Positions 1,146-59,794 of a DNA stretch of 64,000 nucleotides are shown here, piece by piece. A program made the translations under genes and the position numbers. This DNA is from a virus: IMG/VR virus record IMGVR_UViG_3300045970_000924, positions 1-64,000 of that record; one strand, 5' to 3'. The notes under the pieces are model-generated. The model saw nothing but the letters and a program-made list of their open reading frames with translations, did not search any database and was not told the DNA's origin. Position 1 is the stretch's first letter; each line of letters starts with the position of its first letter.

Positions 1146-1808
1146 ATGGCAGGCTCCCTAACGCGAATCCCCGAATCCCTGCACGCAGCGGTGCGAGAGC
1201 GCGCCGGCCGTGGCGAGGGCGGAGAAGCGATTTCGGAGTGGCTGCGCGCGGAGCACAAGGTGCAGATCACCGGCCGGAGCGTCCGGCGGTTTCTGCAGAT
1301 CCACCGCGAAGAGCGGCGAGAGATCACCAAGGCCGCCCTCACGGAGGAGCTGGTCAAGAAGGCTCCGGCCTACCTGGACGCGCTCCAGGGAGTGCTGGAT
1401 AGGGCGCTCGCAGACGAGCGCGCAATCGGCGAGCGGTCGGACATGATCACCGAGACGGAGCGGGTAGCGCTCTCGGACATCGGCGAGGCGTTCGACGAGA
1501 AGGGCAAGCTGCTCCCGCTGGCGAGCATGAAGCCAGAAGTGCGCCGGGCGATCCGCTCGGTGAAGACGAATACGATCTACGGCGAAGACGGGGAGACCAT
1601 CCTCGTGACCGAGGTGACGTTCTGGGACAAGACGAAGGCGTTGGTGGACCTCGTCTCCGCTCGAGCGGCGCTGAAGGACAAGGAGATGGCCATCAAGGCG
1701 CGAGACCAAGTCCTGCGAGCGGTGGCGATGGGGCTGGGCCTCGACTCCGACAAGACGCCTCCCGGCAACCAGGGTGGGGTGATCGTCCTGCCCGAAGAGA
1801 AGGACTGA
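1146..1808 (+). CDS. terS: Terminase small subunit
   Basis: This is the DNA-recognition subunit of the packaging motor. It is 220 residues, slightly long for the family. The N-terminus (residues 1-65) carries a helix-turn-helix-like region ending in ITGRSVRRFL. The middle is coiled. Residues 113-170 hold the family pattern in which a segment like IGEAFDEKGKLLPLASM is followed by a predicted beta hairpin and FWDKTKALVDL. That last motif is shared by many phage small terminases. The large subunit lies 1.4 kb downstream, with the tmRNA and two small genes between, which is an uncommon separation. Confidence 0.8.
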   Translation: MAGSLTRIPESLHAAVRERAGRGEGGEAISEWLRAEHKVQITGRSVRRFLQIHREERREITKAALTEELVKKAPAYLDALQGVLDRALADERAIGERSDMITETERVALSDIGEAFDEKGKLLPLASMKPEVRRAIRSVKTNTIYGEDGETILVTEVTFWDKTKALVDLVSARAALKDKEMAIKARDQVLRAVAMGLGLDSDKTPPGNQGGVIVLPEEKD

Positions 1809-2016: not shown

Positions 2017-2484
2017 ATGTCCACTAACCAGGCCGACCGGAGCGCACTCGTGATCCCTCCCGTCAAGGTCGCGCTGGCGACGGGTGCGGCAGCGACCACG
2101 GCCGGGGCTGCGGTCTCGCAGTTGCTCGGGGCGGCGGTGCCCGACCAGATCGCGTGGGTGCTCGGCGGGCTGGTGGCGGTGGGCAGCGCGATCGCGGTGG
2201 TGCTCACCGGCTACAACAAGTTCACCGAGACGGTGGACCAGCGGGCCCGAGACCGAGCCCGCGAGGTGGTGCAGGAGAACGCGAAGGCAGCAGCCGAGAA
2301 GACCGAGGCGAGCATCGCGGCGGCCATCAAGGACCACTCCCACGAGCAGACCGCAGCGCTGCGCGAGCACATCCATGCTGAGGAGCGGAAGTTCGACGCC
2401 ATCCTCGCGGAGCTGAAGCTCCAGCGGGCGCAGAACGAAAGCATCATCGAGACCGTGAAGTACCTCCGGTCGCAGAAGACGTAA
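2017..2484 (+). CDS. Small membrane protein with C-terminal coiled coil (holin-like topology)
   Basis: The protein has two hydrophobic stretches near the N-terminus (VKVALATGAAATTAGAAVSQ and IAWVLGGLVAVGSAIAVVL). About 90 charged residues of coiled coil follow, rich in Ala, Glu, Lys and Arg. Two membrane spans plus a charged tail match class II holins or a membrane anchor, but the lysis cassette is at 27 kb, so a holin role is uncertain. The start is ambiguous: ATG 2017 has GGAGG abutting it with no spacer, GTG 2050 has GGAG at a better distance, and GTG 1909 would add a Pro-rich leader that looks non-coding. Confidence 0.6.
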   Translation: MSTNQADRSALVIPPVKVALATGAAATTAGAAVSQLLGAAVPDQIAWVLGGLVAVGSAIAVVLTGYNKFTETVDQRARDRAREVVQENAKAAAEKTEASIAAAIKDHSHEQTAALREHIHAEERKFDAILAELKLQRAQNESIIETVKYLRSQKT

Positions 2485-2492
2485 CACTCTTT

Positions 2493-2810
2493 GGGGATGA
2501 CTGGTTTCGACGAGGGCAGTGAGCAGTACGCAGCGCGCCCCGGGTCGCTCGGGACCGGGTCAACAAACCGAGCACCGCACAAAAGCCAACGACAACGTCG
2601 TTTCGCTCAAGTCGTACCGCAGCACCCGCATGGTGAAGCCCAGCGGCGTCGTTCGCAGCAACGCGTTCCAGCTCGCGGCAGCCTAGCTGGATGGTGGAGG
2701 CGGCTCTGGCCGCCCCGTAGTGCCCAGCCCGCGGGGTTCGCGGGACACGCGCGTAGACCCGTACCGCAAGCAGCTTTCGGACGGCGGTTCGAATCCGCCC
2801 ATCTCCACCA
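2493..2810 (+). ncRNA. ssrA: Transfer-messenger RNA (tmRNA)
   Basis: This is a complete 318-nt tmRNA, the RNA that frees stalled ribosomes and tags the nascent chain for proteolysis. The 5' end GGGGATG pairs with CATCTCC at the 3' end to form a 7-bp acceptor stem with one G-U pair, and ACCA follows, so CCA is encoded. Right after the 5' strand comes ACTGGTTTCGACG, the conserved tmRNA D-region. Near the 3' end GGCGG-TTCGAAT-CCGCC is a perfect T arm. The mRNA-like domain starts at GCC 2585 and ends at TAG 2684-2686. GC-rich pseudoknot-type pairings flank it. The gene lies in a protein-coding gap and overlaps none of its neighbours. Confidence 0.95.
2585..2686 (+). other. tmRNA proteolysis-tag reading frame, 33 codons
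   Basis: If the resume codon is the GCC at 2585, set by its position after ACAAAA, the tag starts ANDNVVSLK and ends NAFQLAAA before TAG. The beginning resembles standard tags (E. coli starts ANDENY) and the Leu-Ala-Ala-Ala end is a typical protease recognition tail. The insert of about 20 basic or polar residues makes the tag roughly three times the common length. No stop occurs earlier in this frame. Confidence 0.75.
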
Positions 2811-2880: not shown

Positions 2881-3213
2881 ATGGGCGACTTTTCCGTCAC
2901 GTTCGCTTCGCAGGGCGGCCACGGCTGCGAGCGCAAGGCGAAGGCCGGTGAGCAGTTCTACGGCTGTGGTCGGCTCGACTGCCCGGACTGCTACGCAGCC
3001 GAGCTGGTGCAGCAGTTCCACGCGCGCTTCCCGGTCCACTTCGCCACCTTCACGCACTGGCCCGTCTCGCTGAACGAGAAGATGGGGCGCAACTACCAGC
3101 CCGAGTCCGAGGTGGTGGACTCCATCGTCGAGACGGTGAACTACACCGGCCGGCAGCCGCTGGTGGTCCCGAACCTCCGCAAGCGGATCAAGGGTCGGTT
3201 CAATCCCTCATGA
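2881..3213 (+). CDS. Conserved hypothetical phage protein with Cys cluster, 110 aa
   Basis: The ATG follows a strong GGAGG ribosome site. Residues 14-37 contain C-x13-C-x4-C-x2-C (CERK, then GCGRLDCPDC), which could bind zinc. The C-terminus is basic (RKRIKGRFNPS). The final codons overlap the start of the large terminase as ATGA, so the two are translationally coupled. I see no homology to a named enzyme. A small Cys-bearing protein fused translationally to TerL may be a packaging accessory, but that rests only on position. Confidence 0.75.
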   Translation: MGDFSVTFASQGGHGCERKAKAGEQFYGCGRLDCPDCYAAELVQQFHARFPVHFATFTHWPVSLNEKMGRNYQPESEVVDSIVETVNYTGRQPLVVPNLRKRIKGRFNPS

Positions 3214-4631
3214 CCGCGGCGCCGGCGGTAGCTGGCGCGGTGAAGCCGCTGTGGAAGGCGAACAGCCCACCGCAGCGGCGGTTCCTCGAGACCGGCGCCT
3301 ACGAGGCGCTGTATGGAGGCGCAGCGGGTGGCGGCAAGTCCGACGCGCTCCTCGCGGCTGCGCTGCGGTTCGTCCACATCCCGACCTACTCGGCGCTGCT
3401 CCTGCGCCGGACGTTCCCCGAGCTCCGCCGCACGCTGATCAAGAAGTCTCGACTGCTCTACCCAGCTGCCTTCCCCGGCGCGAAGTACCGCAAGGACGAG
3501 GCCACCTGGACGTTCCCCTCCGGGGCTACGATCGAGTTCGGCCACGCGCAGACCGAAGAGGACGTGCACCAGTACCAGGGTGCGGAGTTCCAATTCGTCG
3601 GCTTCGATGAGCTCACGCACTTCACCGAGTACCAGTACAAGTACCTGCTCTCCCGTCTGCGCTCCGTGATGGGGCCAGACGGCAAGGGGCTCATCCCCGT
3701 GAGGGTGCGGGCTAGCACCAACCCGGGCGGCCCTGGGCACGAGTGGGTCATGCGCCGCTGGGCGCCGTGGCTCTGGCGAGAGCCGGGCACGCCCGAGATA
3801 CCGAAGTGGGACGGCCCGCGCGCGCAAAGCGGCGAGCTGCTCCGTTACAGGCTTGAGGAGAACGGCACCGAGACCTGGCTCGATCAGCCCGAGGAGGGCG
3901 CGTTCGGTCGGGTGTTCATTCGAGCACTGGCGAGCGACAACCCGGCACTGCCGAAAGAGTACCGCACCAGCCTCAACGCCCAGGACGCGCTCACCCGCGC
4001 GCAGCTCCGGGACGGCGACTGGCTGGCGCGGGCCGCTGCAGGGCTGCTCTTCAAGCGGGAGTGGTTCTCCGCGCAGCGAGAGCCGCCGGCGGACGTCGTG
4101 GCGCGGATCCGATACTGGGACCGCGCCAGCACCGAGCCGCACGAGAAGAACCGAGACCCGGACTGGACTGTCGGCGTGAAGCTGAGTCGCACCAGCGAAG
4201 GTGTCTACTTCGTGGAGGACGTCGTGCGCGTGCGCGCCCGGCCTCTCGAGGTGGAGCGGCTCATCCTCGCGACCGCGCTGGGCGACGGCGTCAAGTGCGC
4301 GGTGGGCATCGAGCAGGACCCCGGCCAGGCCGGCGTTGCCGACGCAGAGAACTACACGCGGCTGCTCTCCGGCTTCAACGTCCGGACCTTCAGGCCCACG
4401 GGCGACAAGGTGACAAGGGCGCAGCCGGTCTCCGCGCAGTGCGAGGCCAAGAACGTGAAGCTGGTCGCGGGAAGCTGGCACGGAGCGTTCCTCGGGGTGC
4501 TCGAGGAGTTCCCCGACGGCGCACACGACGACGATGTCGACGGCCTCAGCGGCGCATTCAACGCGATCACGCCCACCGTGGCGGGGCAGAAGCTCTCCCG
4601 GCGGCTCGCCCACTTCGCAGGGCAATCCTAG
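3210..4631 (+). CDS. terL: Terminase large subunit (packaging ATPase and nuclease)
   Basis: This motor ATPase drives DNA into the prohead and cuts the concatemer. Visible motifs are Walker A GGAAGGGKS (36-44), Walker B FVGFDE with catalytic Glu (129-134), and coupling motif RASTNPGG (168-174). The RNase H-like nuclease domain has acidic residues in YWDRAS (D304), IEQDPG (368-373) and the DDDVD cluster (440-444). At 473 residues it has the normal two-domain length. It is followed after 9 bp by the portal gene, the usual order. Confidence 0.96.
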   Translation: MTAAPAVAGAVKPLWKANSPPQRRFLETGAYEALYGGAAGGGKSDALLAAALRFVHIPTYSALLLRRTFPELRRTLIKKSRLLYPAAFPGAKYRKDEATWTFPSGATIEFGHAQTEEDVHQYQGAEFQFVGFDELTHFTEYQYKYLLSRLRSVMGPDGKGLIPVRVRASTNPGGPGHEWVMRRWAPWLWREPGTPEIPKWDGPRAQSGELLRYRLEENGTETWLDQPEEGAFGRVFIRALASDNPALPKEYRTSLNAQDALTRAQLRDGDWLARAAAGLLFKREWFSAQREPPADVVARIRYWDRASTEPHEKNRDPDWTVGVKLSRTSEGVYFVEDVVRVRARPLEVERLILATALGDGVKCAVGIEQDPGQAGVADAENYTRLLSGFNVRTFRPTGDKVTRAQPVSAQCEAKNVKLVAGSWHGAFLGVLEEFPDGAHDDDVDGLSGAFNAITPTVAGQKLSRRLAHFAGQS

Positions 4632-37732: not shown

Positions 37733-37894
37733 CACAGGAACGAGCACGACCTGTCGATTCCTGGCCCGTGTGCGAACTGTGTGCGCCGCCCGGTTCGGCT
37801 CCCTCTGGAGACTGCCGCGCGTTACCGAGCTGTCGGCCACCCCGAAAACAGACCTAACCAGTTGTCTGCGCTCACGAATCTAGGAATAGAACAG

Positions 37895-37944
37895 GCCGAT
37901 TCGTAATCAGCAGGTCATCGGTTCAAATCCGATTGTCGGCTCCA
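37895..37944 (+). other. attP: attP core: 3' half of a tRNA-Thr(CGU) gene
   Basis: The 50-bp segment reads as a tRNA from the anticodon arm to the 3' end. It has the loop TTCGTAA (anticodon CGT), a five-base variable loop, a perfect T arm ATCGG-TTCAAAT-CCGAT, the acceptor strand TGTCGGC, discriminator T and CCA. There is no 5' half, so it is not a functional tRNA gene. It lies 46 bp past the integrase stop, the usual place for attP. On integration it would restore the host tRNA gene. The flanking gap 37674-37990 otherwise holds only the promoter. Confidence 0.88.
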
Positions 37945-37990
37945 CTTTTTCCCGGCCCACCGCAGCACTGTGCGAACCGTGTGCGGATTT

Positions 37991-39049
37991 TCAGCCCCGG
38001 CCACGCAACCCGATGTAGCCCTCGGTGGTCTTCAGGTCGGCGTGCCCAAGCCACGCCTGGATCTGGCGCAGAGGGATGCCCTGCTCGTGCCAGCGCGTCG
38101 CGGCTCCATGCCGCAGGTCGTAGCTGGTGAAGCGTCGAACACCGGCTTTGCGGCAGGCCCTGGTGAGCGCCCGGCCGAGCTGCTGCGCCTCATCGTCCGG
38201 GTAGCGCCGGCCGCAGCACCGGATCGCCGCGTCGATCGCCTCCTTCGGAACGTGCGTCACCTCGATCGCTCGCAGCGTCTTGCCGTCTGGGTCGCGCAGG
38301 ATGCCGCGGGCCTTGTCGATGCTGGCGAGGTTGAGCCGCGCGAACGAGCCCCACCGGAAGCCAGAGCCGCGCAGGACGATCGCGGCGTCCGCCCACTTCG
38401 CCGAGAGGAACGGAAGCACGGCGTCGAGCTCCTCGTCCGTCGCCGGACGGTGCGGGCGGATGTCCCGGTGCTCCTTGAGCAGATGGACCTTGCGCATCGG
38501 GTTCGCGTCCTCAGCGATCTTCTCCAGCCGCACCGCCCACGACATGAGCGACATCATCGCGGCCAGGTCGCGGTTGACGGCTGCCTCGCCCACCGGGCGC
38601 AGCGCATTCGGCAGGGGCAGTCCGTCGGGTCCGCGCTTGGGGCGCTTGCGCGGGGCCTCGTGCAAGGCGGCGTTGCCTGCCCGGCGCCACGCAATGAACC
38701 CGTCGGCGATCGCGACCGTGAACGCCTCCACGGTGGCCACGCCGAGCGGCGAGAGGTACGCGCCCCAACGCAGGTAGGCCGCCCGCTGCTGGTCGACGTG
38801 CTTCTCGCCGTTGGTCGCCTCGCTGTGGACCAGGTAGTCCTTGATCAGCCCTGCGATGCCGGTGGCGGCTTTTTCGTCGCTTCCCGGAACGTATCCATCA
38901 GGGTCTCGCTCGAACCGGGCGAGCTGCTCAAGCGCGCCGGGGAGCGTGTGGCAGCGCGTCGTCTCGCGATACTCGCGGCCGCTGATCGAGAGGCTGATGT
39001 GGTAGACGCGGCCCCGGATGATGCCCCCGACCCACTTCTTGCTTTGCAC
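37991..39049 (-). CDS. int: Tyrosine-recombinase integrase
   Basis: This 352-residue protein carries out site-specific integration at the tRNA-Thr site. An arm-binding N-terminus (SKKWVGGIIRGRVYHISLSI) is followed by a SAM-like core domain (about 60-195). Catalytic residues are Arg232 in GFRWGSFARL, Arg313 in SYDLRHGAAT, His336 in AWLGHADLKTTEGY, and nucleophile Tyr345. The usual first His of the HxxR box is Tyr310 here. I placed the start at GTG 39049, with GGAGG 5 bp upstream, because longer versions have low-complexity leaders. It overlaps the end of the excisionase gene. Confidence 0.92.
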   Translation of the reverse strand: MQSKKWVGGIIRGRVYHISLSISGREYRETTRCHTLPGALEQLARFERDPDGYVPGSDEKAATGIAGLIKDYLVHSEATNGEKHVDQQRAAYLRWGAYLSPLGVATVEAFTVAIADGFIAWRRAGNAALHEAPRKRPKRGPDGLPLPNALRPVGEAAVNRDLAAMMSLMSWAVRLEKIAEDANPMRKVHLLKEHRDIRPHRPATDEELDAVLPFLSAKWADAAIVLRGSGFRWGSFARLNLASIDKARGILRDPDGKTLRAIEVTHVPKEAIDAAIRCCGRRYPDDEAQQLGRALTRACRKAGVRRFTSYDLRHGAATRWHEQGIPLRQIQAWLGHADLKTTEGYIGLRGRG

Positions 39050-39216
39050 AGGTACGCCTCCACATCTTCGCGCTGGTAGCGGATCTGAGCGCCAACCTTC
39101 ATCCCGGTCAACTGCCCGTGCCTGCGCAGCGAGCGCACGGTGTCTACGCTCACCGAGAGCCACTCGGCGACATCGGCGCTGGTGAGAAGCGCGTGCAGGG
39201 GTCTGGCTGCGCTCAC
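38845..39216 (-). CDS. Excisionase-like HTH protein
   Basis: Residues 7-58 form an excisionase/AlpA-type HTH: LLTSADVAEWLSVSVDTVRS, then GQLTGMKVGAQIRYQREDVEAYL. It should bend DNA at att and steer the integrase. GTG 39216 has GAGGAG about 7 bp upstream and overlaps the previous stop (GTGA). The frame continues about 200 bp into the integrase gene with a low-complexity tail, so the functional protein may be shorter than 123 residues. Overlapping int and xis are common. Confidence 0.75.
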   Translation of the reverse strand: MSAARPLHALLTSADVAEWLSVSVDTVRSLRRHGQLTGMKVGAQIRYQREDVEAYLCKARSGSGASSGAASTTSASRSAAASIARRRAATRSPARLSSSPGSSETLMDTFREATKKPPPASQG

Positions 39217-39488
39217 GGACTGCTCCTCTTGGCACGGATAGCTCGCAGGACCCCGGTCTTGACCGGCAGATCGTGCTTGCCCATCCGGAAGCCCATCCCG
39301 TCGAGCACGCGGGCAACGGCAGCGCGGACGCGCCTTCGCTCGGCGGCTCGAGCCCGCTGGGCAACGGTGGCGATGATGGTCGGGCGCACCTCGGCAACGA
39401 GTGCCCGGTTGCAGGCAGCGCAGCAGTCGACGTACGTCGCGTCCTTGCTGCGGGGGCGGGACTGGCAGACCTCGCAGGGCCGCTTCAC
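39213..39488 (-). CDS. Small Cys-motif protein, 91 aa
   Basis: CEVCQSRPRS and CCAACNRALV (residues 5-31) form a likely zinc knuckle. A basic helix (RARAAERRRVRAAVARV) and GMGFRMGKHDLPVKTGVL follow. The GTG start and the stop both overlap neighbours by 4 bp. Probably nucleic-acid binding; unassigned. Confidence 0.6.
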   Translation of the reverse strand: MKRPCEVCQSRPRSKDATYVDCCAACNRALVAEVRPTIIATVAQRARAAERRRVRAAVARVLDGMGFRMGKHDLPVKTGVLRAIRAKRSSP

Positions 39489-42810: not shown

Positions 42811-43534
42811 GGGGCACCGCCTTGAACGACACCGCCCAGCACCAAGGGTTCGCGACCCAGCTGTCGGCGCCGTTGATGGCGCCCCAGACGAGCCGGAAGC
42901 AGTCGCGCGCCGCCCAGTCGCCGGAGTTGCGGGGCGCATCAGGGAAGCCCACTCGCGCGCAACCCTCCATGGACGCCGAGCCCCCGTGGAGCATCCCGGC
43001 CGCCAGCGCTGACGTCACTCCCTCGGCAGCTGCCTCCTCCTCGGTGATCGCCTGCAGCCGCTCGGCGCGCACGGCCGTCACTTCCAGCGTGAGGCGCGAG
43101 GCCCATCGGGGCATATGAATCGAGGGGGACTGCCTCACCCCGTAGCCCTTTGCTGCCCGCACGGAATCGCCGTCCATCGTCGCCGAGTAGCCAACGATCC
43201 TCGGGCGGCCTTCGTAGTCGCGGGGCGAGTCGGCCGGTTCGTCGCCAAAGTCGGGCGGCGCGATCCAGCAGTTCTCCTTCACCCAGAGGCGATCGCCGGG
43301 CGCGCCGTAGGGGCACGCGATCTGGTACTCGCCCTGCTCCGGCTTCAGCTTCATCCACTCCGCGTCGGGCGTCTCCCAGCCCCAGCAGGACGGGTCGTTC
43401 CAGCTTGGGCTCTTGTCGCCGCCCGGCCCGACGTAGTCGATCGGCGCCTTCACCACCCGGCGGGTCTGCGTCTTCTGGCCAGCCAGGAGCGCGCGTACCA
43501 TCGGCGCGCTGAAGAGGATCGGGCGCTCAGCCAC
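42803..43534 (-). CDS. PUA/ASCH-like phage protein, 243 aa
   Basis: The conserved layout is RPILFSAPMVRALLAGQKTQTRRV at the start, CPYGAPGDRLWVKENCW in the middle, HMPRWASRLTLEVTAVRAER, and LVWGAINGADSWVANPWCWAV at the end. This family is common in phage early operons and carries a PUA-like RNA or modified-base binding fold. It is typically next to a Gp37/Gp68 gene, as here. The activity is unknown. Confidence 0.8.
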   Translation of the reverse strand: MAERPILFSAPMVRALLAGQKTQTRRVVKAPIDYVGPGGDKSPSWNDPSCWGWETPDAEWMKLKPEQGEYQIACPYGAPGDRLWVKENCWIAPPDFGDEPADSPRDYEGRPRIVGYSATMDGDSVRAAKGYGVRQSPSIHMPRWASRLTLEVTAVRAERLQAITEEEAAAEGVTSALAAGMLHGGSASMEGCARVGFPDAPRNSGDWAARDCFRLVWGAINGADSWVANPWCWAVSFKAVPRG

Positions 43535-44369
43535 GGCTCACCTCGGGGAACTCGCGGATATGGAGGTCCGGTGCAAGCTCGTCGAGGATGCCGCCCTTCG
43601 TGTCGACAAGGTTGTTGGCCTTGGCGAATGCCGAGCCCGTCTGCTTGAAGAACGCGGGGACGCCGGCCGCCTTGCACTGAGCGAGGATCGAGCGCGCCCG
43701 TTCGATCTCCATCGGTCGCGCGCCTGGGCCGGACTCGCCACCCACGATCACCCAGCCGATGTGCGGGCACCCCTTGGGGTGGCGGTCGCAGTCGCCGTCG
43801 CGGTTGTAGTCGCGGGGGCAGCGGAGGTGCTCGGCGAGGTCCACCGGCCCGAGGAGCGGCTCCACAGAGAGGAAGCGCACGGCCGCAGGCGTGCGCTTCA
43901 GGTGTTCGATGCGCTCGGTGCGCTGCTGGTCCTCGACGGTGGTTCCCGCCCAGACGTTGCTCGGCCAACCCGATGCCCAGATCGGTGGCGCCAGGCGCAC
44001 CATGTTCTCGGGCCGCTTGGTGAGGATCTGCCAGTCGAGGTTCGGCGTCTTGGCGATGAGGTCCCAGAGCCGCTCGCGCTGCTCGTCCAGGTCGCGACGG
44101 TCCTCGAAGACGTCAGCCATCGACGAGCAGAAGACGCGGGCCCGCACGCCGGCGGCGGCCGCCGCGCGCTCCCACTTCAGGGGCTCGTTCCAGTGGGCGT
44201 CTCCGAAGAAGCGGCGCGGAGCGACCGGCCCCCAGTGCTTCTCGGGGCCGCCGCGGAACTTGTCCCAGGCCTCGGCGTAGCAGTTCGTGCAGCCCGGTGA
44301 GACGCGCTGGCACCCCCACCACGGATTGAACGTGTGGTCCGTCCAGGCGATCGCGGTCTCAGTGCCCAC
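43527..44369 (-). CDS. Phage Gp37/Gp68 family protein (DUF5131), radical-SAM-like
   Basis: This 280-residue protein starts TAIAWTDHTFNPWWGCQRVS, then PGCTNCYAEAWDKF with a Cys-x2-Cys-Tyr motif. It continues SSMADVFEDRRDLDEQRERL, LTKRPENM, and WVIVGGESGPGARPM. This is the standard Gp37/Gp68 sequence plan. The Cys group resembles a radical-SAM cluster, though a reaction has not been fixed for the family. It overlaps the PUA-like gene by 8 bp, a pairing repeated in many phages. Confidence 0.88.
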   Translation of the reverse strand: MGTETAIAWTDHTFNPWWGCQRVSPGCTNCYAEAWDKFRGGPEKHWGPVAPRRFFGDAHWNEPLKWERAAAAAGVRARVFCSSMADVFEDRRDLDEQRERLWDLIAKTPNLDWQILTKRPENMVRLAPPIWASGWPSNVWAGTTVEDQQRTERIEHLKRTPAAVRFLSVEPLLGPVDLAEHLRCPRDYNRDGDCDRHPKGCPHIGWVIVGGESGPGARPMEIERARSILAQCKAAGVPAFFKQTGSAFAKANNLVDTKGGILDELAPDLHIREFPEVSRG

Positions 44370-44547: not shown

Positions 44548-44804
44548 GGCTCGACCGCCTTGCCGGGCCGGAGGAGAGAGCGCGCGCGATCGAGTCGGGC
44601 CTTCTCTTCTTCCTCGGTCTCGAGCTTCTCGATAACCACCGACACCGCCAGCTCCGGCACGAGGAACCACTCGGCGCCGTGCACCAACCACGGCCGCCCG
44701 TCGATGTGCACGATGTCGCCGCGGGGCGGAACGCTCGGGAGCATCCGCTCGAGCAACCGCTTTCGCTCCATGCCGTAGAACCGCACCAGCACCTCACCGG
44801 GCAT
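44544..44804 (-). CDS. Hypothetical protein, 86 aa
   Basis: The N-terminal half is beta (VLVRFYGMERKRLLERMLPS, then RGDIVHIDGRPWLVHGAEWF) and the C-terminal half is a charged helix (EKLETEEEEKARLDRARSLL). It resembles a small SH3-like barrel. It overlaps both neighbours. Function unknown. Confidence 0.6.
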   Translation of the reverse strand: MPGEVLVRFYGMERKRLLERMLPSVPPRGDIVHIDGRPWLVHGAEWFLVPELAVSVVIEKLETEEEEKARLDRARSLLRPGKAVEP

Positions 44805-46749
44805 CGGAGGCCCCCGCGCCCAGCGCCAGCTTGTTGCGGCGCGCCTCGGCCTTCGAGGCCTTCTCCGCCGCCTTCGTTCGCAGGTTCGTCGCCCGACGCT
44901 CGTCGTAGGAGATGGCCGCGTTGTGCTCTTCGCACCACAGGCCCGTGCCGTCCTTCACTCCGAGCTGGTTCTTGCCGGGCGAGCCCTTCTCTCCACAGCC
45001 AACCACCTGGCAAAGCCGGGGGCGCCGGGCGTAGGTCCGCGGGGCCTTGATGCTCCCCGAGGTGGGCAAGGGCTCCTGGGTCGCTGCCGCGGGCTCGTCC
45101 TCCTCGCCTTCGATCTCTGGGGCTGCGTCGTTCGCCAGCCCGAGCCGCTGCGCGATCGCCTCGCAGTCCCCGCCTGCAGGGGGCTCAGCCGGTGCGGCGG
45201 CGGGCACCGGAGCGTGCTTGGCGCACCACCTTCCCGCGTCGGGGTCGCAGTCGTAGCAGGCGAACGCCCCAAGCGACGGCAGCGGCTCCCCCTCCTTGAA
45301 CGCTCCGGCCGGCGTCCCCTGCGCTTTCGACAGCTGCTCGCACTCGAAGCAGCACGGCTTGCCGTCCACCTTCCGTTTGGTCGGCTTCTCCCCGCAGGCC
45401 GTGCAGAGCTCGAGCCCGAGCGCCAGAGCCCGAGTGCACTTCTCGCAGCGCGCCACCGGCGAAGTCTCGGGCGCCTTCCACACCTGCCCGCCCACCGAGA
45501 AGCCGAACCCGCAGAGCGACGACCCGATGACGCCGTCGGGGAAGCAGTGCGCCTCCGGGTTCGCCATCGGGTTGTAGAGCCAGTCCGGCGAGTGAACGAC
45601 AGGCGCTGACTGCGGCTCCAGCGCGCCCACCTGGTCCACGGCATCGGGCCTCAGCTGCTCCTGCGTGGGCAGGCCCTCTCCGTGGTCGACCGGCGACGAT
45701 CCGAGGTCTCCACTGCTCGCCTCGCCCGGCCGGGTGTCGCCTTCGGCCGCACTTCCGCCCTTGGGGGCAACGTCGAAGAACTCGGACAGCTCCTTGACCA
45801 GCACGTCCGCGAACGCGGCCTGCGCGTTGCCGACTGCTCCGACCTCCGCCGCCAGGGTCTCGGGAACTCCGGTCGGCGGGGTCGGCTCACCAGTCCCCGG
45901 GGCAGCATCGCCGGGGCCGTCCAAGGATTGCACCGCGCTGGTGTCCGCGGGCTTCTCCTGCTTCACGGCGAGGCTCGCCTTGAGCGCCGCCATCAGGTCG
46001 GTCACGGGCTCCGCGGGCTTCTCCTCCGCGGGCCAGTCCTCGCTCGAGCCCGGCGCAGGTACCTCCCCGGGCGGCTTGAGGCGGTCGAGCGCTGCGGCCT
46101 TCACCACCGGCCGCCCGTACTCCGCCTCCATCTCCACCAGCTTCACGCACGAGGTGCCGCCCACCATGAACGGCGCGCCTTCGATCTTGCCCGTGAAGCC
46201 GCGCGGTCCCTTGTGCGGTTGGTAGATGGCCAGCGCGCCCGGTTGGGGCCACGCCGTCGTATTGGAGACAAGCCCCACCACCGCCACCGAGGAGGGAGTG
46301 GCCTCGATGTGCGGGGTGGGCTCAACCACGGCGGGTGTCGGGGCCGCCGCGGTCGTTTCGGTGGAAGGCCCGATGGGGACAGCCTTGACCTCGGCCTCCC
46401 GCGTCGGCTCGGCCGGTGCACCAGCCTCCTCGACGTGCCCGGGTTCAGTCCCGGCGCCCACGGATGAAGTCTCGGAGTGGTGCGCGTTCGCCCCGATGTC
46501 CGTCATCGTCGTGTTCACGATCTCGCGCATCAGCGGGAGCAGGGCCCGCGCCAGGCGCTCCTCGTCGAAGCCGGGTGCGGTGACGCACATCCCCCAGCGG
46601 ATCGCGCCGGGCTCCTGCTCGCACCGAACCTCGAGCCGCAGCGCCGTCACATTGTCATCGGCGGCGAGGTAGCGAACCAGCTCGCGCAGGCGGTCCACCT
46701 CGGCGGCGCTGTCGTGGTCCATCGGGGTCGCCTCGGCTGCGGGGTTCAT
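44794..46749 (-). CDS. Large hypothetical protein with disordered middle and Cys-rich C-terminus, 651 aa
   Basis: Residues 1-75 form a small alpha-beta domain (LRELVRYLAADDNVTALRLE). Residues about 80-150 are disordered, rich in Pro, Ala and Glu. Residues 160-240 hold a compact domain (NTTAWPQPGALAIYQPHKGP). Another disordered stretch follows to about 390. From 400 on come CEKCTRALALGLELCTACGE, CCFECEQL, CYDCDPDAGRWCAKH and CQVVGCGEKG, a row of zinc knuckles. I cannot name it. ATG 46749 has GGAGGAAG upstream. Confidence 0.6.
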   Translation of the reverse strand: MNPAAEATPMDHDSAAEVDRLRELVRYLAADDNVTALRLEVRCEQEPGAIRWGMCVTAPGFDEERLARALLPLMREIVNTTMTDIGANAHHSETSSVGAGTEPGHVEEAGAPAEPTREAEVKAVPIGPSTETTAAAPTPAVVEPTPHIEATPSSVAVVGLVSNTTAWPQPGALAIYQPHKGPRGFTGKIEGAPFMVGGTSCVKLVEMEAEYGRPVVKAAALDRLKPPGEVPAPGSSEDWPAEEKPAEPVTDLMAALKASLAVKQEKPADTSAVQSLDGPGDAAPGTGEPTPPTGVPETLAAEVGAVGNAQAAFADVLVKELSEFFDVAPKGGSAAEGDTRPGEASSGDLGSSPVDHGEGLPTQEQLRPDAVDQVGALEPQSAPVVHSPDWLYNPMANPEAHCFPDGVIGSSLCGFGFSVGGQVWKAPETSPVARCEKCTRALALGLELCTACGEKPTKRKVDGKPCCFECEQLSKAQGTPAGAFKEGEPLPSLGAFACYDCDPDAGRWCAKHAPVPAAAPAEPPAGGDCEAIAQRLGLANDAAPEIEGEEDEPAAATQEPLPTSGSIKAPRTYARRPRLCQVVGCGEKGSPGKNQLGVKDGTGLWCEEHNAAISYDERRATNLRTKAAEKASKAEARRNKLALGAGASDAR

Positions 46750-47351
46750 GCTTCCTCCGGCCAGAGCGTCTTGAACTCGGTCTTGAAGAGCAGCTCCGCA
46801 TCCACCCAGAACAGCGGCGCGACGTTGATGTGCCCGCAGCGGGCGCCGGTGAGGTTCCACGCCATCGGCCGCTCGCGAGGCGGGAAGAAGAAGCCCGCCT
46901 CCGTCGCCAGCAGGTCGTTGTCGGCGCGCTTCACCACCGCGGGCTCGAATCCCTTGAGCTGGAACCGGGTGGCGATCACCTCCATCACCAGCTTCTCAGC
47001 GTCGCGGTAGGCGGCCATCTGCGGCGCGATCTTCAGCGGCCGCACCATGTCGCCCACGTAGGCTTCAGCGGCGTCGTGCAGGAGCGCCCATCGCTCGATG
47101 TTCAGCCGCTCGTCGGGAGGCAGCGGCAGGTCTTCCGCCAGGATCTCGCGGACCCGCTTCAGCACCAGCGCCGAGTGCTGCGCCACCGAGTACGGCGCCG
47201 GCGTGTGGCCCCCGTAGCGGTTCACCAGCGCGAGCGAGTGCGCGATGTCGTGGAGCCGCACCTCCTCCACGCGGGGCTTGAGCGGAAAGAAGGCCACGCC
47301 GCTCGCCGTCTGCTGCCAGTCTGCGCGGCCGTTGTTCGCTGCTTCCGCCAT
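46746..47351 (-). CDS. HD-domain phosphohydrolase (YfbR-like)
   Basis: The metal ligands of the HD superfamily are all visible: YSVAQHSALV (His59), LLHDAAEAYVGDM (His92, Asp93) and VVKRADNDLLATEAG (Asp near 144). It is 201 residues, the size of YfbR-type 5'-nucleotidases that dephosphorylate dNMPs. In phages such proteins adjust nucleotide pools. ATGA overlap with the 651-residue gene. Confidence 0.85.
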   Translation of the reverse strand: MAEAANNGRADWQQTASGVAFFPLKPRVEEVRLHDIAHSLALVNRYGGHTPAPYSVAQHSALVLKRVREILAEDLPLPPDERLNIERWALLHDAAEAYVGDMVRPLKIAPQMAAYRDAEKLVMEVIATRFQLKGFEPAVVKRADNDLLATEAGFFFPPRERPMAWNLTGARCGHINVAPLFWVDAELLFKTEFKTLWPEEA

Positions 47352-47713: not shown

Positions 47714-48751
47714 CTAGAAGTGGATTTCCGCGTCCTTCACCGCGATGGCGATCGCCTGTTCCATCTGCTTGAGGTCGGCCTCGGTCAGGTCGCTGCTCTT
47801 CGCCTTGCCGGTGGTGGCCTTGACCAGCGCCACGAGGTGCTCGTCCTTCTCGCCGCGCTCGTACTCGTAGTCCGCGGCGATCGCCTGGATGCGCGCCCAG
47901 ATCGACGGGCCACCCGCGGCCGGCGCCGAGACGCCTGCGCCCTTGTTCGCCCGGCGCGCCAACTCCGCGTCGATGGCCGCCACGCCCTTCTCGTTGCTCG
48001 CCTTGAACTTCGCCTTCGCCGGGTCCGCGAGGCTCTCGGTGAAGCACTTGCGGTACCAAGCCAGGTCGCTCTCGCCGACCGTCTCGGGAGACGCGCCCTT
48101 GTTCTTCCCGAAGGCGAAGGTGAAGCCGCTGGACGCCGACCCGCCGCCCTTCGCCCCGGCCTTGTATTCGACCTTCGTGGCGCCGTCGGGCGTGATGTTG
48201 AACTGCGAGAGGAACGCCCACGAGAGCCCGCGCAGACCCAGCAGTGAGGTGACGCCGTTCACCTTGCAGTTGGAGTAGGCGGCCTTGAGGATGTTGCCCG
48301 AGTCGATCTCGTAGAGCTCCCGGCCCGCGTTCGTCTCGGTCCCGAGGAACACATCGCGCGAGCTGCAGGTGCCCATTCCCTCCACCGAGTCGAGCCCACC
48401 CGGCAGCGAGAACGTCGCCTCCACGATCCAGTCGTAGAAGCTCCCCTTCTCGTCGTGCCCCTCGATGCGCTGGCGCCGCGTGTTCGTGATCGAGACCCCG
48501 CAGCGCCGGGCCACGCTCTCCGACCCAGCCGCGCCCAGGTAGGGCTTGCCGTTCTGGTCGAACCAGTGCTCCGGCCGCGTGGCCGAGATCGCGTAGCGAA
48601 TGACGTTCTCGAACGCCTTGTTCCGCTGCTCGATGATGACCAGCGGGTCGACGCCGCGCACCCGAGGCGTGTCGTTCGGCGCCACCAGCGGCGCAGAGCC
48701 CACCACCTCGCCCTCGATGATCACACCGCTCGTCTGCTTTGCCGTGCTCAT
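47714..48751 (-). CDS. Conserved phage protein paired with the exonuclease (candidate recombination partner)
   Basis: This 345-residue protein contains SATRPEHWFDQNGKPYLGAAG, then SVARRCGVSITNTRR, then IDSGNILKAAYSNCKVNGVT followed by SLLGLRGLSWAFLSQF. I recognise this order from proteins encoded next to Cas4-like nucleases in phages. A role as single-strand annealing or DNA-binding partner is plausible but not shown. The C-terminal 50 residues are helical. ATG 48751 has GAGGGAGAG upstream. Confidence 0.65.
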   Translation of the reverse strand: MSTAKQTSGVIIEGEVVGSAPLVAPNDTPRVRGVDPLVIIEQRNKAFENVIRYAISATRPEHWFDQNGKPYLGAAGSESVARRCGVSITNTRRQRIEGHDEKGSFYDWIVEATFSLPGGLDSVEGMGTCSSRDVFLGTETNAGRELYEIDSGNILKAAYSNCKVNGVTSLLGLRGLSWAFLSQFNITPDGATKVEYKAGAKGGGSASSGFTFAFGKNKGASPETVGESDLAWYRKCFTESLADPAKAKFKASNEKGVAAIDAELARRANKGAGVSAPAAGGPSIWARIQAIAADYEYERGEKDEHLVALVKATTGKAKSSDLTEADLKQMEQAIAIAVKDAEIHF

Positions 48752-48774
48752 TGTCTCTCTCCCTCTGTGTTTGG

Positions 48775-49737
48775 CTATTGCCCGATACGGCGGATAGACC
48801 GCCGCCAATAGCTGCCCGGCTTCACTTCGTAGCCGCGCCGTTGAACTTCCTTGCTCGTGATCACGTAGTCGCCCAGCAGCACTTCCTCGGCCCGCGGAAG
48901 CGCGTCCTTCAGCTCCTCGTCGAGCGCCTTGAACTCCTTCGCGGCCTCGGCCAACTCCTCGCGGCGCTCGAGCATCACCAGCAGCTCAGCGTCATCGACC
49001 ACCTGCACGCCAGGCCCGAACGAGACGTCCGGCAGGCAGACGGTCGCGAACTGGCACCGGCCGCAGTCCTTGCTCTGCGTCCGCGAGGGCGGCTCGTCGT
49101 TCAGCACCGCGAGTTGCACGCGGTCCGCCTTGGCGAGCAGCTCCGCGATCCGCGCGTCGTCGCGGGGCACCGCGATGATCGTGGGCCACCCGCTCGCCTT
49201 GCTGAAGAGCACGAAGAGGTGGATCTCTTCGTCCGCCAGGAAGAGGTACGTGAGCGCCTGATCGACGTAGCGGCGGATGTGAGCGGCCTGATGGTGCCGC
49301 ATATCGTCCAGCGTCTTGATCCGCTCGCCAACCAAACCAAGACCTTTCACCTCACAAGAGACCGCCCGCGGCCATCCCGGCATCCGCACGCGCACGTCGG
49401 TGTGCCCACTGATCTGGTGCGCGCGATCCACGTAGTCGCGGCCGCGCTGCACGATCTCGCAGCCCATGTCCTCGAGCCGGCGGACGACGATCCGCTCCAT
49501 GTCCTTGCCCAACTCGAAGATCGCCTGAAGCTCCGGCTGGTGCGCCACACGCTCCTCGGCCGGCACCGTCCGCTCGTAGAAGAGAGCGCGCTCGCAGTCG
49601 TTGCCGATCGAGCTGGCGCGCGTGTTCGCGCTCGGGCCGTTCTTCTTCACCAGCGACTGCATGTAGCGCTGGTACGCGCGCGCCAGGTCGCTCGCGGGGT
49701 CGAACGCGGGAGCCTCCATCACGCTGGCCTCGCTCAT
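48775..49737 (-). CDS. Cas4/RecB-like PD-(D/E)XK exonuclease
   Basis: This 320-residue protein has the nuclease core GHTDVRVRMPG (Asp near 110) and VSCEVKGLGL (Glu-x-Lys near 128). It has a Cas4-type cysteine set: Cys46 in SIGNDCERALFY, then CGRCQFATVC (224-233, C-x2-C-x5-C). Those four Cys would hold an iron-sulfur cluster. This suggests a phage recombination exonuclease. It overlaps the HNH gene upstream by 4 bp and is followed by the partner gene after 23 bp. Confidence 0.85.
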   Translation of the reverse strand: MSEASVMEAPAFDPASDLARAYQRYMQSLVKKNGPSANTRASSIGNDCERALFYERTVPAEERVAHQPELQAIFELGKDMERIVVRRLEDMGCEIVQRGRDYVDRAHQISGHTDVRVRMPGWPRAVSCEVKGLGLVGERIKTLDDMRHHQAAHIRRYVDQALTYLFLADEEIHLFVLFSKASGWPTIIAVPRDDARIAELLAKADRVQLAVLNDEPPSRTQSKDCGRCQFATVCLPDVSFGPGVQVVDDAELLVMLERREELAEAAKEFKALDEELKDALPRAEEVLLGDYVITSKEVQRRGYEVKPGSYWRRSIRRIGQ

Positions 49738-50354
49738 AGCGAGATCCCGGTGAGGCGAGTGCGCGCGTACTCGCGGTCGCGGTTGCAGGTAGAGCAATAG
49801 CGGCCGCGTGCCTTGCCGTACACGAAGTGACGACTGTCGAGGAGGTGTCCGCGCCGACAGTGGGTCTTTTTGGCGTTCAGCGCAGGGGGCGAGAATCCAC
49901 GGAACCAATTCACTTTCTGCGTCACCGCCTCGAGGTGCTGCGGGTTGATGCAGGAGCGAACCCTGCACAAATGGTCGATCTGGAGACCGCTCGGGATTGG
50001 CCCTTTCGCCAATTCAAAGGCGACCCGGTGCGCGTACCGAACACGCCCGCCGACAGCGACCGTCCCGTATCCGTTGGGGGCGAGGTGCTTCAACCAGAGC
50101 GTGCAGCCCGTGTTGGGCTCCGGGATCGAGAAGAGTTCCATCTTGGCGGCCAACTTCGCCGTGTCGATGACCCCCTTGGGGTGGGCGCTGCATCCGCAGG
50201 ACAACACGCTGTTCGGCTTGAACTTGGAGGCGTAGAGGTCCCGCTCGGTCCCGCACGCGCAGCGGCAGCGCAGCAGGCGGCCCTTCATGCCGATGACGGT
50301 GAGCTGCCCGTTGACCGCCCCGATCGCGATGGTGCTCTTCACGGCCGCACCCAT
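49734..50354 (-). CDS. HNH homing endonuclease, 206 aa
   Basis: The core reads RYAHRVAFELAKGPIPSGLQ, then IDHLCRVRSCINPQHLEAVT, a clear HNH_3 motif. Upstream is a Cys knuckle region (CRCACGTERDLYASKF, then CGCSAHPKG). Downstream is THCRRGHLLDSRHFVYG with CSTCNRDREYAR, a zinc module common at the C-end of phage HNH enzymes. ATG 50354 is the likely start; GTG 50345 is also possible. Inserted ahead of the exonuclease, with a 4-bp overlap. Confidence 0.85.
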   Translation of the reverse strand: MGAAVKSTIAIGAVNGQLTVIGMKGRLLRCRCACGTERDLYASKFKPNSVLSCGCSAHPKGVIDTAKLAAKMELFSIPEPNTGCTLWLKHLAPNGYGTVAVGGRVRYAHRVAFELAKGPIPSGLQIDHLCRVRSCINPQHLEAVTQKVNWFRGFSPPALNAKKTHCRRGHLLDSRHFVYGKARGRYCSTCNRDREYARTRLTGISL

Positions 50355-57441: not shown

Positions 57442-57576
57442 TGGCGTGCACTCGAACCCTCCGTAGTTCTCAAGTCGCCGCCAGAGGAGAAGCGGCTCTC
57501 GCGCGGGGTGCCTCTTTCGGCCGTTCTGAGACCTGCGTCGGCATCCGCCGCGGGCTCGCGCTGTACGGAGCCCTCC

Positions 57577-58182
57577 ATGCGTAAGCGCTTCCGTGCCTCC
57601 GCCATCGCCAAGCCCCGCTCCAAGCGGCGCGCCCGCGGGGCCTACTTCACCCCTGATGCGCTGGCCGCCGCGATCTGCCGCTCTCTCGCTGACGAGATCG
57701 GCGCGCCTCGCGACGTCCTCGAGCCCGGCTGTGGCGGCGGCGCCTTCTTGCGCGCCGCCCGCGCGGTGTGGCCCGGCGTGGATCTCGATGGCGTGGATCT
57801 CGTGCCGAAGTGCGAAGGGCCGGGCGCCATCTGGCCCGGGAGCATCTTCGACCTCTGCGAAGGGAAGCTGCGCGCCGAAGACGGCTGGGCGTTGATCGTC
57901 GGCAACCCCGACTTCTTGCACGCCGAGAAGATCGTGCGGCACTGCCTCTCGCTGCTCGCGCCGGGCGGTCACCTGGCCTTCCTTCTTCCGCTCTCGTTTG
58001 CAGCGAGCAAGCAGCGTCGGGCGCTATTCGTCACCTATCCCTGCCGGTATCAGCAGCCTATCGCGGGCCGCCCGGCGTTCATCGGCAAGACCACCGGCTC
58101 CCAGGAGTACGGCCTCTTTGTCTGGAGGCAGGGCTTCAAGGGCCGCGGGCAGATCCTTCCTCCGCTGGAGTGGAAGCCATGA
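57577..58182 (+). CDS. Class I methyltransferase, probable N6-adenine DNA type
   Basis: A 201-residue protein. GAYFTPDALAAAICRSLADE is a typical N-terminus of adenine methyltransferases, DVLEPGCGGGAFLRAARAVW is SAM-binding motif I (about 45-62), and LIVGNPDFLHAEK holds an NPxF variant of catalytic motif IV (near 109). APGGHLAFLLPLSF follows. It is short, and the target-recognition part is small. ATG 57577 has CGGAG upstream. It is likely part of the phage self-modification set with the cytosine enzyme downstream. Confidence 0.78.
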   Translation: MRKRFRASAIAKPRSKRRARGAYFTPDALAAAICRSLADEIGAPRDVLEPGCGGGAFLRAARAVWPGVDLDGVDLVPKCEGPGAIWPGSIFDLCEGKLRAEDGWALIVGNPDFLHAEKIVRHCLSLLAPGGHLAFLLPLSFAASKQRRALFVTYPCRYQQPIAGRPAFIGKTTGSQEYGLFVWRQGFKGRGQILPPLEWKP

Positions 58183-58553
58183 GCACCAAGAACGCGACGC
58201 ACTGCAAGCGCGGCCACGAGTGGGCGGTCTACGGGAAGCTCGGGAGCCAGGGCTACCGGGTCTGCGGGAAGTGCAAGGCCGAAGGGATGAAGCGCTGGCG
58301 GTCTGAGCAGGGAGACGACCGCGCGGTGATCCGGGCTCAGGCGAGGATGATGCGGATCATCCTTCACGAGTGCGGCTACTCGTGGGCGACCGCTGGGCAG
58401 TTCCGAATCGACCTTCGCGAGACGACGATCCATGAGCGCAGCGCTCCGGCCACTGGAGCAGCTCGACGCGACTTCAACCGCTGCCCGGCAAAGCGCTCCA
58501 CCACCATCTCGATCGCGGACCACGCGGTCGCTCGCCTTAATGAGGCCGCCTGA
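58179..58553 (+). CDS. Small zinc-knuckle protein, 124 aa
   Basis: It opens NATHCKRGHEWAVYGKLGSQ, then YRVCGKCKAEGMKRW, the zinc module seen at the tail of phage HNH enzymes but here on its own. A basic middle and VIRAQARMMRIILHECGYSW follow. ATGA overlap with the methyltransferase ahead and one-base overlap with the one behind. It may be a remnant of an HNH gene or an accessory to the modification genes. Confidence 0.55.
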   Translation: MSTKNATHCKRGHEWAVYGKLGSQGYRVCGKCKAEGMKRWRSEQGDDRAVIRAQARMMRIILHECGYSWATAGQFRIDLRETTIHERSAPATGAARRDFNRCPAKRSTTISIADHAVARLNEAA

Positions 58554-59794
58554 TGGGCCTCCGGTTCGGCAGCGTATGCAGTGGTATCGAGGCCGCCAGC
58601 GTGGCCTGGTCTCCGCTTGGATGGGAGGCCGCGTGGCTCGCGGAGATCGAACCGTTTCCCTCTCGGGTGCTCGCGCACCACTACCCCGAGGTGCCGAATC
58701 TCGGCGACATGACCACCATCGCCGCGCGCATCCTCGCGGGTGAGGTGGAGGCGCCCGACCTGCTCTGCGGCGGCACCCCTTGTCAGTCCTTTTCCGTCGC
58801 CGGGCTCCGCAAGGGGCTCGCAGACGAGCGCGGCAACCTCGCGCTCGAGTTCGTGAGGCTCGCAGATGCCATCGACCAGAAGCGCAGCGACCCAGCTTGG
58901 ATTCTTTGGGAGAACGTCCCCGGAGTCCTCTCCAGCGCCGAGGGTCGCGACTTCGGATGCCTCTTGGCGGGCCTGGTCGGAGAGGATGCCCCACTCCTTC
59001 CGCCACGGGATGGGTGGACGGACGCGGGTGTGGTTGCTGGACCAACGCGAGTCGCTGCGTGGCGCATCCTCGATGCCCAATACTTCGGAGTGGCCCAGCG
59101 CCGCCGACGTGTCTTTGTGCTCGCTCGCGGAGGTGCTGGAGGTTGGGCCGCACCTGACGCGCTACTGCCTATCGGCCCGCGCCTGTCTCGGAATCCTCCG
59201 ACGCGCGCAGAAGCGCGGCAAGGAGCTGCCCGAGGCGCTGCGGAACGCGCTGGAAGCGGCATCGAGGGGCTAGCGCATTCCCTGCGGGCGCGGGCGAACA
59301 GCGCGCACCGCGAGGATGCGGAGACTTACGTCCCTTGCATTTCTCCTGCGCTCAAGGCGCGCGACTGCAAGGGGCCATCAAGCGACGGCGACGGCGACGG
59401 CGCGACGCTCGTCGCTCAGCTCGTCAGCGGCAACCAAGGGGGGGGGGCAACCGTAGTTGGCTCGGCATCGAAGAGCCGCACCAGACCCTCACTCGCAACC
59501 ACAAGCCCAACGCCATCGTCGCGCTGCCCGGAGATCGGGGGCGGCTTTGACGAACCGCTCGCCATCCAGGGCACGATGATCGGGCGCGGCGATACCGCGG
59601 GGCCGCAGGGCATGGGCGTGGGCGTGGGCGTGGGCGTGGGCGTTCAGTTCACACTCACAAAGACGGACGTTCACGCGGTGCTCGCCTTCGACCCACGCCA
59701 GGTCACCAGCAAGACCAACCGCAGCAATCCGCAGCCCGGTGACCCTGCGCCCACGCTTGCGACTACCCCCCCCCCTGATCGGGGGTTTCTTTGA
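58553..59794 (+). CDS. C5-cytosine DNA methyltransferase, N-terminal part (frame-disrupted)
   Basis: Catalytic motifs are intact: motif I RFGSVCSGIEAASVAW (4-19), motif IV GGTPCQSFSVAG with catalytic Cys (near 76), motif VI WENVPGV, and motif VIII QRRRRVFVLA. Then a long variable target-recognition region follows, with GVGVGVGVGV from a GGGCGT repeat. The frame ends at 59794 just after C10 at 59766-59775. The missing C-terminal motif resumes in the +1 frame at once. One base less in the C-run would join them. The protein as read lacks motif X and is probably inactive. Confidence 0.85.
   Translation: MGLRFGSVCSGIEAASVAWSPLGWEAAWLAEIEPFPSRVLAHHYPEVPNLGDMTTIAARILAGEVEAPDLLCGGTPCQSFSVAGLRKGLADERGNLALEFVRLADAIDQKRSDPAWILWENVPGVLSSAEGRDFGCLLAGLVGEDAPLLPPRDGWTDAGVVAGPTRVAAWRILDAQYFGVAQRRRRVFVLARGGAGGWAAPDALLPIGPRLSRNPPTRAEARQGAARGAAERAGSGIEGLAHSLRARANSAHREDAETYVPCISPALKARDCKGPSSDGDGDGATLVAQLVSGNQGGGATVVGSASKSRTRPSLATTSPTPSSRCPEIGGGFDEPLAIQGTMIGRGDTAGPQGMGVGVGVGVGVQFTLTKTDVHAVLAFDPRQVTSKTNRSNPQPGDPAPTLATTPPPDRGFL

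What the first reader, a model, noticed from the sequence alone, without database searches (positions are those of the whole stretch)
2493..2810. Phage-encoded tmRNA with an unusually long 33-codon tag frame
Acceptor stem, D-region, T arm, CCA and a tag frame are all directly readable. Phage tmRNAs are known but uncommon. This tag keeps the usual start (ANDN) and a Leu-Ala-Ala-Ala end but inserts about 20 mostly basic or polar residues. It could free stalled ribosomes under heavy late translation, redirect tagged proteins, or compete with host tmRNA. It lies between terS and terL, so it could be made with the late transcript. I infer an advantage to the phage; nothing here proves it.
Basis: partly seen in the sequence, partly recalled or inferred. 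Interest (0 to 1): 0.9.

Follow-up and report, generated by a model that had tools for sequence, protein, structure and literature searches.

The report
Phage tmRNA with 33-residue tag frame
A temperate, contractile-tailed phage carries its own gene for tmRNA, the RNA that frees stuck ribosomes and tags the unfinished protein; the gene looks intact, but its tag is about three times the usual length and the rest of the RNA has been cut short, an unusual variant of a known molecule.

Summary
Confirmed. Window 2493-2810 (+) is a complete one-piece tmRNA gene (ARAGORN; Rfam RF00023 at 76.6 bits against a threshold of 47). Its tag frame, 2585-2686, reads ANDNVVSLKSYRSTRMVKPSGVVRSNAFQLAAA*. Conserved parts are present: acceptor stem with the G3-U alanine pair, D-loop, T-arm, encoded CCA, a perfect pseudoknot 1, a resume codon 11 nt downstream of it, and helix 5 holding the stop codon. 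The 25-codon interior uses phage-like codons (third-position GC 0.92), so the long frame looks selected for translation. Tags in 79 one-piece viral ARAGORN calls and 84 bacterial ones (mostly Myxococcota) are nearly all 8-15 residues. Phages with permuted tmRNA genes reach 28, and the published range is 8-35, so this is extreme but not outside what is known. The stop-to-3'-end part is 124 nt (usually 210-240), so the pseudoknot 2-4 region is stripped down. The gene is not an attachment-site remnant: the integrase lies 35 kb away, beside a tRNA-Thr(CGT) 3' half. Over 100 viral TerL relatives have no tmRNA near terL: a lineage-specific accessory gene. No SmpB gene was found, so host SmpB is needed. 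Most likely a working ribosome-rescue RNA appending a long, basic, degradable tail; advantage to the phage is not shown.

The parts
2493..2810 (+). one-piece tmRNA (ssrA) gene, 318 nt, CCA encoded
   Evidence: ARAGORN; Infernal RF00023 76.6 bits, full-length match
2493..2499 (+). acceptor stem 5' strand GGGGATG; pairs with CATCTCC 2800-2806 and contains G3-U (alanine identity pair)
   Evidence: sequence reading and coordinate script
2500..2511 (+). D-loop segment ACTGGTTTCGAC
   Evidence: aligned to the RF00023 consensus
2539..2573 (+). pseudoknot 1: CCCGG 2539-2543 with CCGGG 2555-2559, and GCTCGG 2547-2552 with CCGAGC 2568-2573
   Evidence: perfect pairing in canonical order; second helix also in the MFE fold
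2585..2686 (+). tag reading frame, 33 codons plus TAG, resume codon GCC at 2585
   Evidence: codon statistics
2597..2671 (+). 25-codon interior VVSLKSYRSTRMVKPSGVVRSNAFQ between ANDN and LAAA
   Evidence: third-position GC 0.92, P 2e-4; CAI 0.75
2667..2691 (+). helix 5: TCCAGCT 2667-2673 with AGCTGGA 2685-2691, enclosing the tag end and stop codon
   Evidence: MFE and centroid folds, coordinates
2699..2744 (+). shortened pseudoknot 2-4 region: hairpin GGCGGC/GCCGCC 2699-2714 and hairpin CCCGCG/CGCGGG from 2728
   Evidence: folds; stop to 3' end 124 nt against medians 238 and 213
2783..2810 (+). T-arm GGCGG-TTCGAAT-CCGCC, acceptor 3' strand, discriminator A and CCA
   Evidence: 94% identical to the 3' part of a Myxococcota tRNA-Ala(CGC)
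1146..1808 (+). terminase small subunit-like gene
   Evidence: Pfam Terminase_2 E 1.9e-5, 25.8 bits, just below cut-off
2017..2484 (+). ORF with hydrophobic segments, ends 8 bp before the tmRNA; family unknown
   Evidence: no PHROG hit, only chance-level Pfam hits
2881..3213 (+). short ORF between tmRNA and terL, unknown
   Evidence: ORF list; no family hit
3210..4631 (+). terminase large subunit
   Evidence: phrog_979 E 1.1e-121
37880..37945 (+). tRNA-Thr(CGT)-like 3' half beside the integrase: probable attP
   Evidence: sequence; 2-3 mismatches to complete tRNA-Thr(CGT) genes of Myxococcota
37991..39397 (-). tyrosine integrase
   Evidence: Pfam PF00589 E 1.3e-12; phrog_1 E 3.3e-32

Best explanation
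It is a functional phage-borne one-piece tmRNA. Shown by sequence: an alanine-type acceptor end, pseudoknot 1, a resume codon at normal spacing, a 33-codon open and codon-adapted frame, and helix 5 with the stop. Inferred: it is cut from the packaging-gene transcript, charged with alanine, bound by the host's SmpB, enters ribosomes stalled on truncated mRNA, and adds a 34-residue tail (Ala plus 33 encoded residues). The tail ends in ...AFQLAAA, like native tags in Myxococcota, so it should mark the product for a ClpXP-type protease after the ribosome is released. The extra 22 or so residues act as a flexible, basic tether between the stalled protein and the degradation signal. The longer mRNA-like part has been accommodated by stripping the pseudoknot 2-4 region, which is known to be replaceable. 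The phage gains extra rescue capacity while packaging and head genes are being expressed.
For: Full-length covariance match over threshold. Conserved parts at expected places. Coding-like statistics confined to the tag frame. Ala-Ala-Ala-stop end is rare by chance, and -LAAA ends occur in Myxococcota host tags such as ANNNDSFALAAA and ANNNSNFEMLAAA. Position 8 bp after a same-strand CDS in the packaging block. attP lies elsewhere, so it is not an integration scar. Pseudoknots other than PK1 are replaceable in E. coli tmRNA (PMC3968760, PMC4236655). Many other phages carry complete tmRNA genes (402 of 18,146 genomes in PMC9004378).
Against: No transcript, charging or tagging data exist. The score is lower than all 93 Myxococcota host matches, 91.8-199.3 bits, because of the shortened ring. 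No relative with this long tag was found, so conservation of the tag cannot be tested. No SmpB gene found in the 65.7 kb record. The host is not identified.
Confidence: 0.68

Rival explanations
1. The tag has been repurposed: the long basic tail changes the fate of rescued proteins (slower or different proteolysis, another protease or partner), so the phage redirects rather than copies host trans-translation.
For: 33 residues is about three times the common length; the interior has 5 K/R and a single D in the whole tag; the interior codons are kept translatable.
Against: The C-terminus keeps a normal degradation-signal shape, and -LAAA also occurs in native tags of likely hosts. No homologue of the interior in phages or elsewhere in the window.
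Confidence: 0.14
2. Neutral or decaying passenger: a host ssrA copy picked up by the phage whose ring and tag have drifted under no selection.
For: Pseudoknot 2-4 region lost; none of over 100 viral TerL relatives examined has a tmRNA near terL, so the gene is not needed by the lineage; open frames are cheap at 68% GC.
Against: Intact acceptor stem, T-arm, PK1 and helix 5; no internal stop; significant codon bias in the tag frame; C-terminal Ala-Ala-Ala.
Confidence: 0.1
3. Decoy or inhibitor that titrates SmpB or competes with host tmRNA, as reported for the tRNA-like-domain-only RNA of mycobacteriophage DS6A.
For: The tRNA-like domain is well preserved; a DS6A-type molecule inhibits host tmRNA (PMC4131195, PMC11915505).
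Against: Unlike DS6A it keeps PK1, a long codon-adapted tag frame, helix 5 and a stop, none of which a decoy needs.
Confidence: 0.05
4. The tag is mis-read: translation resumes elsewhere or the tag is shorter.
For: ARAGORN misplaced some tags in my own survey (L191, L204, L196).
Against: ANDN is the commonest start in related Myxococcota tags; it sits 11 nt after PK1; nucleotides 1-92 have normal length; helix 5 and LAAA-stop coincide at the end.
Confidence: 0.03

Closest known systems
Bacterial one-piece tmRNA (ssrA, Rfam RF00023), Myxococcota type, e.g. tag ANDNVELALAA (L217)
   Same: Acceptor end, D-loop, PK1, spacing to the resume codon, ANDNV start, helix 5 with stop; 72% and 75% identity over the 5' and 3' conserved ends
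   Different: Tag 33 instead of 9-14 residues; stop-to-3'-end 124 nt instead of a median of 238; total 318 nt instead of 364
Phage-encoded one-piece tmRNAs (viral contigs L116-L161, L365-L430; Streptomyces phages such as Pepperwood, tag ANSKFAFALAA)
   Same: Complete tmRNA gene in a phage genome, often shortened to 289-350 nt
   Different: Their credible tags are 8-17 residues, often next to tRNA arrays; here there is no tRNA array and the gene sits in the packaging block
Phage permuted tmRNA genes with long tags (L164: ANDNAFDFTAMSFTGNTVANDSKFALAA, 28; L431: 28; L179: 25)
   Same: ANDN- or ANE-type start, long interior, degradation-type end (...ALAA or ...AMAA)
   Different: Circularly permuted gene order, different interior, shorter than 33
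Methylophilales phage Melnitz tmRNA (PMC9004378)
   Same: Complete tmRNA in a myophage genome; function inferred only
   Different: Two-piece, controlled by a glutamine riboswitch, related to alphaproteobacterial ssrA
Mycobacteriophage DS6A tmRNA-like RNA (PMC4131195)
   Same: Phage RNA with a tmRNA tRNA-like domain
   Different: DS6A has little more than the tRNA-like domain and no tag frame

Membership tests
tmRNA (RF00023) | Covariance score over the curated threshold | tested here: met
   76.6 bits, gathering 47, model 1-374
tmRNA (RF00023) | tRNA-like domain: 7-bp acceptor stem with G3-U, T-arm, short D-loop, CCA | tested here: met
   T-arm and acceptor end resemble tRNA-Ala
tmRNA (RF00023) | Pseudoknot 1 upstream of the resume codon | tested here: met
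   Two perfect stems in pseudoknot order, 2539-2573
tmRNA (RF00023) | Alanine-type resume codon at normal spacing and an open tag frame ending in a hydrophobic/alanine-rich tail | tested here: met
   GCC at nucleotide 93 (host median 93); ends AFQLAAA-stop
tmRNA (RF00023) | Helix 5 carrying the stop codon | tested here: met
   TCCAGCT/AGCTGGA around TAG
tmRNA (RF00023) | Pseudoknots 2-4 (usual, but variable in number and replaceable) | tested here: inconclusive
   Only hairpins seen; 124 nt from stop to 3' end. No relatives for a covariation test
tmRNA (RF00023) | Alanylation, SmpB binding and peptide tagging | not testable with these tools
   No SmpB gene found in the phage record; host SmpB assumed
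Prophage attachment-site ssrA fragment | Partial ssrA next to the integrase | tested here: not met
   Complete gene; integrase 35 kb away beside a tRNA-Thr(CGT) 3' half
DS6A-type decoy RNA | tRNA-like domain only, no tag frame | tested here: not met
   Tag frame with significant codon bias

The most novel reading that the evidence does not exclude
The phage has evolved a recoded trans-translation system: a stripped ring and a long, selected, basic tag give rescued proteins a fate different from that set by the host tag, so that infection redirects quality control instead of merely boosting it.
Probability: 0.12. Interest if true: 0.75.

Novelty: new variant of a known kind. Interest (0 to 1): 0.42.

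Why it matters
Why phages keep tmRNA genes is unexplained. A natural tmRNA whose tag is about three times the usual length, with codon use suggesting that the extra length is kept translatable, gives a direct handle: swapping this tag for the host tag in a laboratory strain tests whether the peptide, rather than only ribosome release, matters. It also documents a natural trade between a long mRNA-like region and a reduced pseudoknot ring, in line with laboratory evidence that pseudoknots 2-4 can be replaced.

Tried and rejected
attP remnant: rejected, because a tRNA-Thr(CGT) 3' half lies beside the integrase. Stop-codon loss from a normal short tag: unlikely, because there is no internal LAA and the frame ends in LAAA inside helix 5. 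Capture of a phage gene fragment: no match to the tag elsewhere in the window, and one chance hit (E 9) among 50,697 phage records. Close relatives of this tmRNA: none by exact 5' or tag patterns in IMG/VR; in 379 Myxococcota-phylum genomes the only match was a tRNA-Ala 3' end. Long ANDN tags in 284 Myxococcota genomes: one pattern hit, an ordinary 12-residue tag. Host by attB: no exact match, best 2 mismatches. RNA folding energy is uninformative (z 0.23). Promoter scan found nothing. One genome search failed for a wrong handle.

Full report
Observation. ARAGORN finds one RNA gene in the window, a tmRNA at 2493-2810 (+) with tag ANDNVVSLKSYRSTRMVKPSGVVRSNAFQLAAA. Infernal matches the complete RF00023 model at 76.6 bits, E 5.3e-28, threshold 47. 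The record is a linear virus record of 65,748 bases with this single tmRNA.

Anatomy. The acceptor stem GGGGATG/CATCTCC has G at position 3 opposite U, the alanine identity pair, then discriminator A and an encoded CCA. The T-arm is a perfect 5-bp stem with TTCGAAT. Pseudoknot 1 is formed by CCCGG/CCGGG and GCTCGG/CCGAGC at 2539-2573, and the resume codon GCC follows 11 nt later. The last codons and the stop lie in helix 5, TCCAGCT/AGCTGGA, which appears in both the MFE and the centroid fold. After helix 5 there are only two hairpins before the long closing helix. Stop to 3' end is 124 nt, against medians of 238 nt in bacterial genomes and 213 nt in viral one-piece genes.

The long frame. Being open for 33 codons is cheap at this composition (47% of random frames), but ending in three alanines before the stop is not (0.14%). 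The 25 interior codons have GC 0.52/0.48/0.92 by codon position (third-position shuffle P 1.8e-4) and a CAI of 0.75, near the median of the phage's own genes, while the other five frames give 0.26-0.52. I take this as the best sequence evidence that the insert is translated and maintained. It cannot show why.

Survey of tags. I scanned 46 viral contigs with the same 5' end, 24 with an ANDN...AA-stop pattern, 59 with a Myxococcota-type 5' end and 8 more. Among 79 one-piece calls nearly all tags are 8-15 residues. The longest credible one is 17 (L408); an 18-residue call (L383, frame at nucleotide 203) and two 28-residue calls (L388, L390, frame at 211) look like misplaced frames. Permuted genes reach 23-28 (L164, L431, L179, L416). 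Of 84 one-piece calls in bacterial genomes, mostly Myxococcota, tags are 9-14, with one convincing 19 (L195) and two misplaced frames. Reviews give 8-35 residues as the known range (PMC8012679, PMC3968760). The 97,179-sequence database paper gives 10 as the commonest length and 2 as the shortest, and the passages I read do not state a maximum (PMC11915505). So 33 is extreme in my sample but within the published range.

Phage and host. TerL, portal, head morphogenesis protein, head protease, tail sheath, tape measure and baseplate genes make it a contractile-tailed phage. It has a tyrosine integrase. Beside the integrase, at about 37880-37945, is the 3' half of a tRNA-Thr(CGT) with no complete tRNA. 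Close matches (2-3 mismatches) occur in 12 of 379 Myxococcota-phylum genomes, and those checked are mostly complete tRNA-Thr(CGT) genes. The best genome hits of TerL are two contigs of a Deltaproteobacteria MAG at 55% identity, with a Myxococcales MAG at 49%, and the closest sampled tmRNA ends are Myxococcota. The host is therefore probably in Myxococcota, by inference only.

Accessory status. None of 103 viral TerL loci or of 19 genome-derived ones scanned has a tmRNA near terL, and each of 93 Myxococcota genomes with a strong match showed a single tmRNA. The gene is thus a lineage-specific insertion in the packaging block, 8 bp after a same-strand CDS and in the direction of terL. Without a promoter signal (a scan that does not cover all promoter types) read-through from upstream is the simplest source of RNA.

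Mechanism. Trans-translation needs a tmRNA with a charged tRNA-like domain, SmpB, a resume codon and a stop. All RNA features are present; no SmpB gene was found in the phage, so host SmpB is required. I infer ordinary rescue with a 34-residue tail whose -LAAA end is shared by some native Myxococcota tags. The extension acts as a basic flexible tether and the lost pseudoknots are compensated by the longer mRNA-like strand. Literature says only PK1 is needed for tagging among the pseudoknots and that even PK1 can be swapped for a hairpin (PMC3968760), and that ORF length is variable (PMC4236655). Repurposing of the tag is possible but has no positive evidence beyond length and charge.

Known or new. 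Phage tmRNAs are known (402 of 18,146 genomes, PMC9004378; mycobacteriophages and phage G, PMC4131195). No paper retrieved treats long phage tags, within the limits of the library. I file this as a tmRNA by sequence and structure, a new variant in tag length and ring reduction, with function untested.

Noticed in passing
window 37880-37945: 3' half of a tRNA-Thr(CGT) directly beside the integrase gene: probable attP of a temperate phage.
   Followed up: yes
window 2779-2810; L432 about 1501-1532: The T-arm and acceptor 3' end of the phage tmRNA are 94% identical over 32 nt to a tRNA-Ala(CGC) in a Myxococcota-phylum genome; possible patching from tRNA-Ala.
   Followed up: partly
L164, L178, L182, L183 (tag of 28); L431 (28); L179 (25); L416 (23): Other viral contigs with permuted tmRNA genes carry long tags, so long tags recur in phages.
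   Followed up: partly
L388, L390, L391: L388 and L390 get overlapping ARAGORN calls, a standard tmRNA (28-residue tag) and a permuted one (ANNIVAFSR-like tag); L391 gets the permuted call only. The standard calls look misplaced.
   Followed up: no
L166 1068-1446: tmRNA with tag ANDNHFVEEIRAAA inside an array of 31 tRNA genes in a 137 kb viral contig.
   Followed up: no
window 43527-44369 (-): DUF5131 family protein (PF07505, E 4e-73; phrog_2045), unknown function.
   Followed up: no
window 44794-46860 (-): 688-residue ORF without Pfam or PHROG match, near a Cas4/RecE-like exonuclease (48775-49968) and a further unmatched 364-residue ORF (47714-48808).
   Followed up: no
window 57508-59794: Methyltransferase and C5-cytosine DNA methylase genes.
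   Followed up: no
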